A stretch of 64,000 bases of DNA, from positions 124,001 to 188,000 of IMG/VR virus record IMGVR_UViG_3300037010_001702; one strand, 5' to 3'. Origin of the DNA: a virus. The position numbers were made by a program, and so were the translations under genes. The notes beneath the pieces are model-generated. The model saw only the letters and a program-made list of their open reading frames with translations. It was not told where the DNA came from and searched no databases. This document shows positions 48,869-63,941 of the stretch, in pieces (position 1 is the stretch's first letter; the number at the start of each line of letters is the position of its first letter).

Positions 48869-49753
48869 ATGGCAGGAAATGAGCTCATTAAACGAGCATA
48901 TACGGAATCGGAATATACCCCCGAGCTTATTCAAGAGCTCGTAAGGTGTCAAAAGGACCCCGTCTACTTTATTAGAAAGTACGTCTGGCTCCAGCACCCA
49001 AAGCGCGGTAAAATTCTATTTGACTTGTATCCCTATCAAGAGGAGCTTATTCACGCGTGTGAGAACAATACCCGTGTTATCGCTCTTATCTCCCGTCAGA
49101 TGGGTAAGACGCAGACCATCTCCATGTACCTTTTGTGGTATGCGATGTTCCACCGAGATCAAACGATTGTCATCGCTTCTAAGAACAATAGCCACGCTAT
49201 GGAAATTATGGATCGTATCCGCTTCGCGTACGAAGAACTTCCGCACTGGCTAAAGGCAGGTTGTAAGTACTATAACAAGCACAACATTGAATTCGACAAT
49301 GGTTCCCGCATTAAGTCTGAAGCTACTACCGAAAAGACTGGTCGGGGATTGGCAATTTCAAAGCTTTACCTTGACGAATTGGCCTTCATCTCACCACGCG
49401 TTCAAACTGAAATGTGGCGCTCACTATCGCCAACTCTTTCAACTGGTGGTTCTGCTATCATCTCATCTACTCCTAATGGTGATACTGACCTGTTTGCTAC
49501 TCTTTGGCGTGGTGCTAAATCAGGTGAGAACAACTTCAAGCCAGTGTTCTTCCCGTGGCACCTTCACCCTGATCGCAAGGAAGAGTACATTAAGCAGATG
49601 CAGGGCGAACTTGGTCCTGTAGGTTTCCGACAGGAAGTTCTGTGTTGCTCAAGTTGGGCCTCTATAAATACTTCTATTGGTAAAACCACTTTAGAAGAAC
49701 TTTATGAATGCCTATTAGAAGGGCAAGAGCAGGTGTATCACATCAATGTTTGA
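48869..49753 (+). CDS. gp17: Large terminase gp17, N-terminal half plus N-intein
   Basis: A 294-residue ORF. Residues 1-258 are the terminase ATPase: ALISRQMGKTQT (Walker A, 72-83), FDNGSRIKSE, KLYLDELAF (Walker B, 165-173) and SSTPNGDTD (coupling motif III). They end at GFRQEVL. From Cys259 the sequence is an intein start: CCSSWASINTSIGKTTLEEL then YECLLEGQEQVYHINV and TGA. C-x7-I-x-T-x2-G-x5-EELYE matches block A of inteins. The missing terminase half plus the C-intein is at 50214. Splicing would join ...RQEVL to CEFISS..., restoring the family's 'RQE..CEF' sequence. The N-intein is only 36 residues. Confidence 0.93.
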   Translation: MAGNELIKRAYTESEYTPELIQELVRCQKDPVYFIRKYVWLQHPKRGKILFDLYPYQEELIHACENNTRVIALISRQMGKTQTISMYLLWYAMFHRDQTIVIASKNNSHAMEIMDRIRFAYEELPHWLKAGCKYYNKHNIEFDNGSRIKSEATTEKTGRGLAISKLYLDELAFISPRVQTEMWRSLSPTLSTGGSAIISSTPNGDTDLFATLWRGAKSGENNFKPVFFPWHLHPDRKEEYIKQMQGELGPVGFRQEVLCCSSWASINTSIGKTTLEELYECLLEGQEQVYHINV

Positions 49754-50213
49754 CACGAAGGATTACAACCTGACGACTGGGGGGCATTTCAAGCATGTGG
49801 TGACCCCAGGGCGCACCTCTTCCGCACTACGGAAAACTGGACTGCTTCTTCTGATAAGTATAGAAAACATTCGAAGAACATCCGAATGTTCTTGCAGCAA
49901 GAACTAAGATAATTCACGAAGCTAACTTAAAAGCAGGTGAGGATGGTTAACGGTTACAAGCGCACTGCAAAAGGACGAAATCTATGTTCTGACGCGTGTT
50001 GAAAACAAAAAGATTATAGAGTTCTATGGTAACTATTGGTATGCTTGCCTAAAAAGTACAGACCTGATGAAGTGGTAGGTTGTAAAGGCCAAACATCACG
50101 GCAAATCTGTGACGCGGATGCCACCAAGATCAAGTTGGCAGAAGATGCATGGTATCAAGTTAAGATAGTATAAGAACCGGAATACAAGAAAAACCTAAGA
50201 AGGTGGTAGATGA
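49754..50213 (+). pseudogene. Decayed core of the terL intein between the two halves
   Basis: This 460-bp gap has no intact ORF but is not random. After the TGA at 49751 the same frame goes on as HEGLQPDDWGAFQACGDPRA then HLFRTTENWTASSDKYRKHS to TAA 49910. Five successive -1 shifts then keep it protein-like: KIIHEANLKAGED; TSALQKDEIYVLTRVENKKI; KKYRPDEVVGCKGQTSRQIC; KPKKVVDECIAWLK; and finally the frame of the C-intein. It reads as the former middle of a longer contiguous intein, without a recognisable endonuclease motif. Confidence 0.7.
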
Positions 50214-51353
50214 ATGCATAGCATGGCTCAAACAATAAAGAACACAAAGGGCGTTAAAGTTCAAACTCCAACTGGGATGAAGAATTTTAGCGGTATGTCT
50301 AAAAGCTGGCATGAGCAAGTTGTTGAAATAGTATCAGCAACAAGAAAAATAACGTGCGGGATGAAGCATAAATTTCTTGTTGAGCCAGGTTGGGTTGATG
50401 CTGAGCACATTGAGCCGGGTATGTCATTTACGACAATTGATGGCAAGGATGATCCTATCCTTAGTGTTCAGGTTAAAAATGATCCACAGTGGTTGTATGA
50501 TCTACTTGATGTTGAGGGTGGTAGTGCCTACATAACAGAGGGGGTCATATCGCACAACTGTGAATTTATTTCATCAGACGCGCTGTTGATGGACTCACTT
50601 AAACTGTCCTACATTAAGGCCACACCTCCGGTTACCCAGAACATGGGCTTTAACTTCTGGCGAGAGTCAATAGGTGGGCGAGGTAAGACGTACTTAGTAG
50701 GTGTAGACCCGGCTACTGGTAACAGTAAGGACTTTACTGTCATTGAAGTTATCGAGTACCCGTCAATGGAGCAGGTGGCAGAATTCAGAAGCAACACCGT
50801 TCACATTCCACTGATCTATGCTAAGCTCAAGTGGTTGTTTAAGTTCCTTCATCAACCTGATCCAAACAGGGGTAGAGCTGAAATTATCTGGTCATTTGAG
50901 CGCAACGGTGTTGGTGAAGCTCTTGTTGCAATGATTCAAAATGACGACTCTATGGATGGTGGTATCTACCTTGACGGTGTTGAACTGTACAATGAGAGCT
51001 CAACCAGTCAGCGCCTTGGTTGCTACACTACTGGTAAGTCAAAGCTTCTTGCCTGTATGCAGCTTAAGAACCTTTTGGAAAAGGGAGATGGTATCAAGAT
51101 CAACTCAGAACACTTGCTATACGAGCTTCAGAACTTCGTGGCAGTTAATGGCACCTACCAAGCTAAGCAGGGTTGTACTGATGACACGATCATGGCAATG
51201 GCGGTTGTTATGAAGGTTCTCGGCAGACTCGCATCATACGATGACAAGGCAAGAAAGCTTGTGTATGAGTCAGTTGACCCGGACTCTGACAAGCTTCCGG
51301 AGGAAAACCCAGATCAATTTGGAGATGACTACGTTCCGTTTGCAATAGTCTGA
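50214..51353 (+). CDS. gp17: C-intein plus large terminase gp17, C-terminal half
   Basis: A 379-residue ORF. Residues 1-115 are the intein C-part: GVKVQTPTGMKNFSGMSK (13-30), block B ITCGMKHKFLVEPGW (46-60), block F QWLYDLLDVEGG and block G ITEGVISHN|C (Asn115, +1 Cys116). The Thr usual four positions before the block B His is Gly. Residues 116-379 are the terminase nuclease: YLVGVDPATGNSKDFTVIEV (first acidic residue), EIIWSFERNGVGEAL and GCTDDTIMAMAVVM. Spliced TerL would have 522 residues. An AAGG site lies upstream of ATG 50214; ATG 50223 is an alternative start. Confidence 0.92.
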   Translation: MHSMAQTIKNTKGVKVQTPTGMKNFSGMSKSWHEQVVEIVSATRKITCGMKHKFLVEPGWVDAEHIEPGMSFTTIDGKDDPILSVQVKNDPQWLYDLLDVEGGSAYITEGVISHNCEFISSDALLMDSLKLSYIKATPPVTQNMGFNFWRESIGGRGKTYLVGVDPATGNSKDFTVIEVIEYPSMEQVAEFRSNTVHIPLIYAKLKWLFKFLHQPDPNRGRAEIIWSFERNGVGEALVAMIQNDDSMDGGIYLDGVELYNESSTSQRLGCYTTGKSKLLACMQLKNLLEKGDGIKINSEHLLYELQNFVAVNGTYQAKQGCTDDTIMAMAVVMKVLGRLASYDDKARKLVYESVDPDSDKLPEENPDQFGDDYVPFAIV

Positions 51354-61161: not shown

Positions 61162-62220
61162 ATGAAATGTATTCTGCGAATAACCGATGAAGTATGGTGC
61201 CAGATATCTGGTATAATGCCTGGGCATGTAGAGACATTAGTAAAAGCATTTTCTGTTCACCCAGAAGGTTATTTTTTTATGCCTGCCTTCAAGCTTGGGA
61301 GATGGAACGGATATATCCAATTTTATTCTCCAACAGGTAAGACCTATGTCCGTCTATTAGATCAGGTTATCCCTTACTTAGAGAAGTGGGGATATGACAT
61401 TGAGCTGATAGATAATCGAAAGTACTTTGAACCTCCTGTAGTTGGCGGTAAGCTTTTGACTATTGACCCTGCGGGCATTGCTCTCACTGCTTCTGGGACT
61501 AACATAATGGGCGATGATGTTGTCGTTGGCGGAAAGGTATTCAATCTCCGCCCATACCAATTACAGTGTGTTCAGATTGCTGTAGAGAATGGAAGTGGTT
61601 TCATTATCGCAGGAACTGGTGCAGGCAAAACCTCCATCACAGGTGCTCTCTCCTACTACTATGCCAATGCCGGCTATAAAGTAATCACGATTGTTCCATC
61701 CGGTGATCTTGTAGACCAAACAGCTGAGTGGTATGAACTCCTAGGTCTAGATGTAGGCACCTATTCTGGTACAGAGAAGGACCTTGACCACATGCACATC
61801 GTTGCAACGTGGCAGGCAGTACAGTATAATCCTACAATCATGCATGACTTTCAATGTCTGATTTGGGATGAGTGTTTTTGTGGTGAGACTCCTGTATTGA
61901 TGTCTGACATGACGGAAAAGAAAATAAAAGACGTTCGGGTCGGTGATTATGTTTTATCAATGGACGCAAACGGAAATTTCGAGCCTTGTAAAGTGTTAAA
62001 AACTCACATTAATTTACCAAAATCTAAGGTAAAAATGCTTCGGCTAACGTTTGATAATGGACGTTATTTAGATGTTACCGAAAATCATATTTTCTATCTA
62101 AAAGATGGTAGAAAGGTTATGGCAAAAGATTTAACTGAGCGTGATGATATATGTGAATTCTCCTTAAATAAAATGAAAGCTCATGGAGATAAAGTGAATG
62201 AAGAAGAAAATCATAAATGA
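61162..62220 (+). CDS. uvsW: Helicase UvsW, N-terminal part plus N-intein
   Basis: A 352-residue ORF. Residues 1-237 are UvsW: the N-terminal DNA-binding piece (FFMPAFKLGRWNGYIQFYSP), RPYQLQCVQIAVENG (Q-motif-like), FIIAGTGAGKTSITG (Walker A, 148-162) and the first half of the DExH box, QCLIWDE. From Cys238 it becomes an intein: CFCGETPVLMSDM, VRVGDYVLSMDANG, block B RYLDVTENHIFYL (T-x-x-H) and MAKDLTERDD, ending with a stop after 115 residues. The remaining helicase half and C-intein lie at 63084. The HE gene between them overlaps this ORF by 23 bp. Confidence 0.93.
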   Translation: MKCILRITDEVWCQISGIMPGHVETLVKAFSVHPEGYFFMPAFKLGRWNGYIQFYSPTGKTYVRLLDQVIPYLEKWGYDIELIDNRKYFEPPVVGGKLLTIDPAGIALTASGTNIMGDDVVVGGKVFNLRPYQLQCVQIAVENGSGFIIAGTGAGKTSITGALSYYYANAGYKVITIVPSGDLVDQTAEWYELLGLDVGTYSGTEKDLDHMHIVATWQAVQYNPTIMHDFQCLIWDECFCGETPVLMSDMTEKKIKDVRVGDYVLSMDANGNFEPCKVLKTHINLPKSKVKMLRLTFDNGRYLDVTENHIFYLKDGRKVMAKDLTERDDICEFSLNKMKAHGDKVNEEENHK

Positions 62221-63115
62221 TTTACTAGGAGATGAATTTTTAATAGATATTAAGTTTTTACCTAGAACCGGATCAGTCAGATTGCCTTTTGATTCAGCTG
62301 TATTTTCATGTGGTCGCAAGCTTAATAAAAAAGAGTTTGGTAAATTTTATAGACTATTAATGCAAGGTCATCTTGAAGAAGCTAGGACTTTTGTAGCAGC
62401 TCCACAAGAATTTGAAAAATTAAACAAACAACGAAGGCAGATTGCTGCTTCTAAAGGTGGTAGGGCTGCCATGTTAGATCCGAAAAATTATGTTTGTAAT
62501 AAAAATGGTACGCATTGGAATAGAGGGACAGTTGGATTAGTTAAGGCATGGAACAAAGGATTAACTAAAAATACTGATGTTCGATGCAAAAACATCTCTA
62601 TCGCTAAAATGGGAGCAAAAAACCCAATGTATGGTAGACCAGTATCAGCTTTAACGCGTGAAAAGTTATCATTAAAAGCAAAGCAAAATATTGAATCAGG
62701 TAAATGGACCCCTAATACGTTTAATTCTAGAACAAGAAAGCAACTTAAATTTAGAGATAAACTTTTCAGAAGTAGCTGGGAGGCTCTTTTTTATCAAGCA
62801 TTTCCACAAGCAGAATACGAAAAGATTAGAATACCGTATTTTACTGATAAGCATCACGTTTACATTACCGATTTTAAAGTTGGTAATGTAATTTATGAAA
62901 TAAAACCTGAGAAGTACGTAAAATTAAAACAACCCATTCTTGATATAGTAGCACGCTGGTGTGTTAGCAATGGATTTGAATTTGTTATATTAACTGAATT
63001 TTCTTTAACAGAACTAATACCAAAACACACTGTTAATTTTAGTGAATTTGATGAAAATACTGAAAAACTATTAAGAGGATTATATGCATCTGTTGAAAAA
63101 AGAAGAAATAGATAA
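62198..63115 (+). CDS. Split-intein-associated homing endonuclease (Vsr/PD-(D/E)XK-like)
   Basis: A 305-residue AT-rich ORF between the two uvsW halves, overlapping both (23 and 32 bp). Residues about 100-160 hold NUMOD3-like repeats (WNRGTVGLVKAWNKGLTKNT; NISIAKMGAKNPMYGRP). Residues 190-240 form a PD-(D/E)XK/Vsr-like nuclease core: FRSSWEALFYQ (Glu195), VYITDFKV (Asp225) and IYEIKPEKY (E-x-K 234-236). This arrangement, a free HE between split-intein halves, is the known fractured-gene organisation of phage split inteins. GGAG is 9 bp before the ATG. All active-site residues seem intact. Confidence 0.88.
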   Translation: MKKKIINDLLGDEFLIDIKFLPRTGSVRLPFDSAVFSCGRKLNKKEFGKFYRLLMQGHLEEARTFVAAPQEFEKLNKQRRQIAASKGGRAAMLDPKNYVCNKNGTHWNRGTVGLVKAWNKGLTKNTDVRCKNISIAKMGAKNPMYGRPVSALTREKLSLKAKQNIESGKWTPNTFNSRTRKQLKFRDKLFRSSWEALFYQAFPQAEYEKIRIPYFTDKHHVYITDFKVGNVIYEIKPEKYVKLKQPILDIVARWCVSNGFEFVILTEFSLTELIPKHTVNFSEFDENTEKLLRGLYASVEKRRNR

Positions 63116-63941
63116 GCCAGAAAAAGTTTATGATTTAACTGTTGATAAACACCACAACTATATTGTTAATGGTGCTGTTGTTTCGAATTGTCACGGTATC
63201 AAAGCTACTGTTGCGCAGAAACTTGTCAATGATAATGGTAAGCACATTGCATTCCGCTTTGGCGTAACAGGAACATTCCCTAAACCAGAGTCTGAAAAGC
63301 TTTCTCTTATTACTTCAATTGGGCCTATCCTCAAAGAGATTCCTGCTGCGTGGTTAATTGACCATGGTTATCTTGCTAAGGTTCAGATTCAGCCTGTTGA
63401 ATTGAATGAGAGTTATATCGATGAAGACTTTCCTGACTATGCTGCTGAGAAATCCTTCTTAGCTAAGAGCACTAATCGAATGGAGATCATTGCTGATTTG
63501 ATCATCTCTCAATGTGCAGCGCATGGCAATACTCTTGTCCTGGTTAACTCTATTCCATTTGGTGAAAAGTTAGCTAAGCTGATTAAGGGTGCTGTCTTTC
63601 TTTATGGCGAATCACCAAAAGACTTGCGCCGCGAACATTATGATATGTTTGAAGAGAATGATGATATAATAGTAATAGCCTCAGCAGGTATTGCTTCAAC
63701 AGGCCTCTCGATTGACCGTATTTTCTGTATGATGTTTGTAGATGCAGGTAAATCCTTCATCAAAGCTATTCAATCAGTAGGGCGCGGTCTTCGTATTGGA
63801 CATGACAAAGATTCTGTTATGGTTGTCGATGTTCACTCTAAACTAAAATGGGCAGTGAGGCACTTTAAGGAACGAGTGAAGCACTACAAAGAAGCTGGAT
63901 ACCCAATAAACAAGAAACAAACTTTGAAAGTAAAAGGTTAA
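63084..63941 (+). CDS. uvsW: C-intein plus helicase UvsW, C-terminal part
   Basis: A 285-residue ORF. The first 35 residues are a C-intein: MHLLKKEEIDKPEKVYDLTV (block F) and DKHHNYIVNGAVVSN, with terminal Asn35 and +1 Cys36; the usual penultimate His is Ser. The extein resumes as CHGIKATVAQKLVN, completing the DE|CH helicase motif II, then RFGVTGTFPK (motif III), VNSIPFGEKLAKLI, VIASAGIASTGLSIDRI and QSVGRGLRIG (motif VI). Spliced UvsW would have 487 residues, close to T4 UvsW. AGAGG lies 6 bp before the ATG. The 63942-64000 tail holds no gene I can support. Confidence 0.93.
   Translation: MHLLKKEEIDKPEKVYDLTVDKHHNYIVNGAVVSNCHGIKATVAQKLVNDNGKHIAFRFGVTGTFPKPESEKLSLITSIGPILKEIPAAWLIDHGYLAKVQIQPVELNESYIDEDFPDYAAEKSFLAKSTNRMEIIADLIISQCAAHGNTLVLVNSIPFGEKLAKLIKGAVFLYGESPKDLRREHYDMFEENDDIIVIASAGIASTGLSIDRIFCMMFVDAGKSFIKAIQSVGRGLRIGHDKDSVMVVDVHSKLKWAVRHFKERVKHYKEAGYPINKKQTLKVKG

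What the first reader, a model, noticed from the sequence alone, without database searches (positions are those of the whole stretch)
49643..50558. terL is broken by an unusually split intein, with the decayed intein core still present between the halves
Seen: the ATPase half ends ...FRQEVL, then a 36-residue N-intein (Cys259, SIGKTTLEELYE). 460 bp later a new ORF gives a 115-residue C-intein (VQTPTGMKNFSG, CGMKHKF, ITEGVISHN) and CEFISSD..., the rest of TerL. The gap translates as protein-like sequence through one nonsense codon, a further stop and five successive -1 frame changes, ending exactly in the C-intein frame. Known: atypically split inteins with an N-part of only about 25 residues exist in phage terminases (AceL-TerL type), and the motifs here line up with those block by block. 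Inferred: a contiguous intein decayed in its middle and survives as a trans-splicing pair. That would be a snapshot of how atypical split inteins arise.
Basis: partly seen in the sequence, partly recalled or inferred. Interest (0 to 1): 0.92.

Follow-up and report, generated by a model that had tools for sequence, protein, structure and literature searches.

The report
Split-intein terminase with dead homing endonuclease
A large phage makes its DNA-packaging motor protein in two pieces that a split intein most likely joins, and the scrambled DNA between the pieces is the wreck of a selfish endonuclease gene, not the missing middle of the intein; this is a well-documented new example of a known arrangement.

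Summary
The two halves are real. TerL residues 1-258 plus a 36-residue N-intein are followed, 460 bp later, by a 115-residue C-intein plus the rest of TerL. The insert is exactly 49643-50558. Intein-free relatives lack it, and it is identical in two other contigs. The C-intein's closest solved relatives are the atypically split CatC and VidaL. The gap is not intein core: N-part plus C-part already make a full splicing domain, and contiguous mini-inteins at this TerL site are only 130-148 residues. The gap is a pseudogene (49704-50238) of a Vsr/EDxHD-type homing endonuclease. Three gap peptides in three frames are the top three of 2,408 window peptides against an independent profile. An intact copy (379 aa) sits at the same place in L082, one with a single stop in L018, and only its tail in L020. 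So this is the 'fractured gene' arrangement with a dead endonuclease; the split did not arise by decay of the gap. The same genome has three more fractured genes (uvsW, nrdA, T4-type RNA ligase) with intact endonucleases. The wider lead is that one split point in TerL hosts several unrelated endonuclease families, endonuclease-less forms and apparently re-fused contiguous forms.

The parts
48869..49642 (+). TerL N-extein (ATPase part, residues 1-258)
   Evidence: Pfam Terminase_6N E 4.7e-14; 94% identical to the closest intein-free relatives
49643..49750 (+). N-intein, 36 aa, Cys1 at 49643; stop TGA 49751-49753
   Evidence: exact insertion boundary against L005-L013; aligns with N-inteins of L018, L020, L082 and contiguous inteins L021/L027
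49704..50238 (+). pseudogene of a Vsr/EDxHD-type homing endonuclease: stops at 49716 and 50171, several frame changes, about 490 bp shorter than the L018 copy; overlaps N-intein ORF by 50 nt and C-ORF by 25 nt
   Evidence: phrog_22677 E 6.5e-8; tblastn of L018 and L082 endonucleases; independent profile ranks gap peptides 1-3 of 2,408; intact homologues in L082, L077, L014
50200..50206 (+). AAGGTGG, Shine-Dalgarno-like, 7 nt before ATG 50214
   Evidence: read from the sequence
50214..50558 (+). C-intein, 115 aa, own start codon, ends ...ISHN
   Evidence: phmmer to CatC 6dsl E 8.5e-9 and VidaL 6vgv E 4e-4; Pfam Intein_splicing 3.2e-6, below curated cut-off; pN/pS 0.24 against L018
50559..51353 (+). 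TerL C-extein (nuclease part), Cys+1 at 50559
   Evidence: PHROG terminase large subunit E 2.9e-19; 81-86% identical to the closest intein-free relatives

Best explanation
TerL is a 'fractured gene'. Its two halves are translated separately, each ending or starting in one half of an atypically split intein (36 + 115 residues). The halves meet, fold into one HINT domain and trans-splice to give full-length TerL (inferred from conserved residues; not shown). Between them lies a free-standing endonuclease gene of the Vsr/EDxHD homing family. When alive, it would have cut intein-free terL alleles and spread the whole cassette (inferred). Here it is dead: stops, frame changes, internal deletions and loss of invariant catalytic residues (shown). 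Only splicing is still under selection. The last codons of the pseudogene survive next to the C-intein's ribosome-binding site and start.
For: C-intein is nearest to atypically split CatC/VidaL. Exact insertion at ...EVL|CEF. C-intein pN/pS 0.24 against L018, the same as the exteins at 0.23-0.29. Gap matches phrog_22677 (6.5e-8), also hit by the L018, L082 and L077 endonucleases; the annotated VSR endonuclease that lies between the intein halves of split DNA polymerase in Aeromonas phages is homologous. Gap peptides rank 1-3 of 2,408 against an independent endonuclease profile (shuffles). Intact copy at the same TerL site in L082 (379 aa), one stop in L018, remnant tail in L020. AF2 model of the L018 domain (pLDDT 86.5) has Vsr 1vsr/1cw0 and I-Bth0305I 3r3p as Foldseek ranks 1-3, weak E but 3r3p TM 0.50. 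Residues invariant in three intact homologues (D9, D22, H25, W49, W70) are V, N, Y, C and stop in the gap. Only one terL in the record: the second hit is PhoH. Cultured phages with split TerL inteins exist: VP-1 (same site) and PX29 (one residue away).
Against: No splicing was observed. The N-intein has unusual block-A residues (C2, S4, W5, A6 where relatives have S/T at position 6) and a high pN/pS (0.57-0.75, 36 codons), so reduced splicing cannot be excluded; but L018 and L020, each with an open TerL, also differ strongly from each other there (0.86). Foldseek E-values for the nuclease are above 0.1. The genome record may be incomplete.
Confidence: 0.9

Rival explanations
1. One reading: a contiguous intein decayed in its middle and survives as a trans-splicing pair; the gap is residual intein core.
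For: Gap is protein-like and the frames can be strung together into the C-intein frame.
Against: Contiguous inteins at the same TerL site are 148 and 130 aa with at most about 15 residues between the aligned N- and C-parts. The gap matches an endonuclease family in order and in three frames. The same split with intact endonuclease exists in L082 and nearly intact in L018.
Confidence: 0.03
2. A contiguous large intein with a built-in endonuclease domain was broken apart by the frame changes, so that the split is secondary to endonuclease decay.
For: Some inteins carry endonuclease domains; the window's lesions alone do not show which came first.
Against: In L018 and L082 the endonuclease is a separate ORF in another frame overlapping the intein ORFs. 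Same separate-ORF layout in Aes508 polymerase and in this genome's uvsW. The C-ORF has its own SD-like sequence and start.
Confidence: 0.04
3. Splicing has been lost: the N-intein is decaying too, and TerL works as two separate polypeptides or the phage lineage is defective.
For: Unusual block-A residues and high pN/pS in the N-intein.
Against: Cys1, C-terminal HN, Cys+1 and the HKF motif are kept. C-intein is under strong purifying selection. The same sequence is in other contigs.
Confidence: 0.08
4. Self-splicing RNA intron or assembly error.
For: Frame changes in the gap resemble indel errors.
Against: No Rfam match in 49400-50800 at E up to 1. Intein motifs abut the junctions exactly. Identical in L003, and identical across the insert in L004, which differs by one SNP elsewhere.
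Confidence: 0.02

Closest known systems
AceL-TerL, GOS-TerL and consensus Cat atypically split TerL inteins
   Same: TerL host, short N-part (25 / 37 / 30 aa) and long C-part (104 / 115 / 104 aa; table in PMC11766414); here 36 + 115; CatC is the top PDB hit
   Different: C-intein about 36% identical to the CatC segment; gap holds a Vsr-type endonuclease pseudogene; unusual N-intein block A
Fractured genes (Dassa et al. 2009, doi 10.1093/nar/gkp095; paper not held, its title seen in the reference lists of PMC10448857 and PMC3229294; content from my own knowledge)
   Same: host gene broken by a split intein with an endonuclease gene in the break
   Different: endonuclease is dead; split position is atypical
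Aeromonas phage Aes508/Aes123 split DNA polymerase with VSR endonuclease (L014, L015)
   Same: same endonuclease family between N- and C-intein ORFs, overlapping ORFs. The Aes123 PolB1 split intein trans-splices in vitro (PMC11923092)
   Different: different host gene, canonical split position, intact endonuclease
I-Bth0305I (3r3p) EDxHD homing endonuclease
   Same: nuclease domain family
   Different: window copy is a pseudogene; I-Bth0305I is an intron endonuclease

Membership tests
Atypically split TerL intein (AceL/GOS/Cat type) | N-intein of about 25-40 aa and C-intein of about 100-115 aa on separate ORFs | tested here: met
   36 and 115 aa
Atypically split TerL intein (AceL/GOS/Cat type) | Sequence homology to the family | tested here: met
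   CatC E 8.5e-9, VidaL 4e-4; about 40 split loci found from the alignment with CatC
Atypically split TerL intein (AceL/GOS/Cat type) | Cys1, penultimate His and terminal Asn, Cys+1 | tested here: met
   Cys codon at 49643...SHN up to 50558, Cys codon at 50559
Atypically split TerL intein (AceL/GOS/Cat type) | Block A Ser/Thr at position 6 (usual, not known to be strictly required) | tested here: not met
   Ala in the window; Ser or Thr in the aligned relatives
Atypically split TerL intein (AceL/GOS/Cat type) | Protein trans-splicing | not testable with these tools
   needs co-expression
Fractured gene arrangement | Split-intein halves flank a separate endonuclease ORF | tested here: met
   as a pseudogene in the window; intact in L082, one stop in L018
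Vsr-like / EDxHD homing endonuclease | Sequence homology to the family | tested here: met
   phrog_22677 6.5e-8; independent profile
Vsr-like / EDxHD homing endonuclease | Fold of Vsr/I-Bth0305I (tested on the L018 relative) | tested here: inconclusive
   Foldseek ranks 1-3 but E 0.25-0.52; 3r3p TM 0.50
Vsr-like / EDxHD homing endonuclease | Open frame and intact active-site residues (a working enzyme) | tested here: not met
   stops, frame changes, D/D/H replaced
Decayed contiguous intein core | Gap homologous to intein sequence between N- and C-parts | tested here: not met
   no intein match in the gap; contiguous relatives have no such segment
Group I intron | Covariance-model match | tested here: not met
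   no Rfam match

The most novel reading that the evidence does not exclude
The atypical split point of TerL inteins is a recurrent landing site. Unrelated endonuclease families (Vsr-like, GIY-YIG, HNH and an unclassified PD-(D/E)XK-like one) occupy the same break in different phages, die or are deleted while the split persists (window, L020, L045), and the intein can fuse back into one frame (L021 nested among split relatives in the TerL tree, 98/94). If so, a split intein is a stable platform through which homing endonucleases turn over, and splitting is reversible.
Probability: 0.4. Interest if true: 0.6.

Novelty: new member of a known kind. Interest (0 to 1): 0.38.

Why it matters
It corrects a tempting misreading: the debris is a dead selfish gene, not half an intein. 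With L082, L018 and L020 it gives a graded series (intact, one stop, many lesions, only the tail left) of endonuclease death inside one essential gene while the split intein stays under selection. That makes the homing cycle of split inteins testable at a single site, and it adds a new natural short-N split intein for protein labelling work.

Tried and rejected
Direct tblastn of the read-through gap against cultured phages gave nothing at 1e-5 and only Aeromonas VSR endonucleases at E 0.2. Pfam and PDB searches of the gap gave only chance hits. AF2 of the L018 endonuclease without an alignment was useless (pLDDT 38.7); it was repeated with 52 homologues. Rfam: nothing. Dassa 2009, Bachmann 2015 and Taylor 2011 are not held in the library.

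Full report
What is there. The N ORF (48869-49753) carries the terminase ATPase part and, after residue 258, the peptide CCSSWASINTSIGKTTLEELYECLLEGQEQVYHINV. The C ORF (50214-51353) starts with 115 residues ending ...ITEGVISHN and continues CEFISSD... as the terminase nuclease part. Relatives 78-94% identical over the N-extein, without any insert, read ...RQEVLCEFISSD... straight through, so the insert is exactly 49643-50558, 916 bp. Two other contigs (L003, L004) hold the same insert base for base; L004 differs from the window by one SNP in 9,137 bp. Whether these samples are related is not known to me.

The intein. The C-part's best PDB relatives are CatC (6dsl, E 8.5e-9) and VidaL (6vgv, 4e-4), both atypically split. 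A review lists GOS-TerL as 37 + 115 residues and AceL-TerL as 25 + 104 (PMC11766414), so 36 + 115 is ordinary for the group. A search with the window C-intein and the CatC segment found 52 loci. Where both halves could be scored at the TerL site, 41 were split and 5 contiguous (two copies of the window's own sequence, L016/L017, are among the 41). The contiguous ones are 148 aa (L021-L023; L067 is cut by the contig end) and 130 aa (L027), and they align from end to end with the window's N-part plus C-part. So no core is missing and the gap cannot be one.

The gap. Three peptides from the gap, in three different frames, are the top three of 2,408 six-frame window peptides against a profile of 54 Vsr-like endonucleases that does not include the window. 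The best of 1,000 shuffles scores 10.4 bits against 24.7 and 21.6. The joined reading scores phrog_22677 at 6.5e-8. The same PHROG is hit by the L018, L082 and L077 endonucleases. The annotated VSR endonuclease of Aeromonas phages, which sits between the halves of their split DNA polymerase, is homologous and has the same 353-residue length as that PHROG. L082 holds an intact 379-aa version at the same TerL site; it matches the window in order at its N-terminus, middle and C-terminus. L018/L019 hold a version with one stop. L020 keeps only the last dozen codons (AIKEHIEWYKR*, read by eye). The window's pseudogene starts at ATG 49704 inside the N-intein, in a different frame, and ends at 50238, overlapping the C-ORF by 25 nt, as in L018. 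Its frame changes, two stops and about 490 missing bp, and the replacement of residues invariant in intact homologues, show that it is dead. The structure model of the L018 nuclease domain ranks Vsr and I-Bth0305I first, with weak E-values, so the family name rests mainly on sequence.

How it works. Shown: two ORFs, precise insertion, conserved splice residues, C-intein under purifying selection equal to TerL, no second terL in the record. Inferred: trans-splicing, and past homing by the endonuclease. Cultured phages with split TerL inteins (Vibrio VP-1 at the same site; Aeromonas PX29 one residue away, annotated 17A/17B with putative N- and C-intein) make a working split TerL plausible. The main doubt is the N-intein, whose block A is unusual and fast-changing.

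Evolution. In the TerL tree the window sits among intein-free relatives, while the carriers L018, L020 and L082 are interspersed with other intein-free ones. This patchiness fits horizontal spread, loss, or both. The split is shared with L018 and L020 (intein clade 97/96), so it predates the endonuclease's decay here. Elsewhere the same break holds a GIY-YIG (Pfam 5.3e-8), an HNH (4.5e-12) or an unclassified ORF with a PD-(D/E)XK-like motif seen by eye, or nothing (L045, nested in the GIY-YIG clade). L021 is contiguous yet nested within split relatives (98/94), which suggests re-fusion. These points go beyond the finding and rest on few sequences.

Genome context. Three more fractured genes lie in the same record, all with canonical split positions and open endonuclease ORFs: uvsW (in the window, 61162-63941), nrdA, and a T4-type RNA ligase whose endonuclease lies on the opposite strand.

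Verdict. The thing is a new member of a known kind, with a useful decay series around it.

Noticed in passing
window 61162-63941: Second fractured gene: UvsW-type helicase split by a canonical split intein, with an intact 305-aa TnsA-like/NUMOD3 endonuclease ORF (62198-63115) overlapping both halves.
   Followed up: partly
L078 4716-8260 (G000:C1:189715-193259): nrdA (ribonucleotide reductase large subunit) fractured by a split intein with a 268-aa GIY-YIG endonuclease ORF between the halves.
   Followed up: partly
L077 1030-3643: T4-type RNA ligase 1 gene fractured by a split intein; the Vsr-like endonuclease between the halves lies on the opposite strand (1583-2620), which I have not seen described.
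   Followed up: partly
L018, L024-L026, L029, L034, L045, L020 (TerL site): One TerL split point holds at least three or four unrelated endonuclease families in different phages, or none.
   Followed up: partly
L021-L023, L067: Contiguous 148-aa mini-intein nested in the TerL tree among split relatives (98/94): possible re-fusion of a split intein.
   Followed up: partly
L027, L041, L163 (Vibrio phage VP-1): TerL genes with two inteins, one near the Walker A motif and one at this site; in VP-1 the first is contiguous and the second split with a GIY-YIG domain fused to the N-part.
   Followed up: no
L012 1801-3530: About 1.7 kb insertion in terL near residue 80 in a relative that is intein-free at the window's site.
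   Followed up: no
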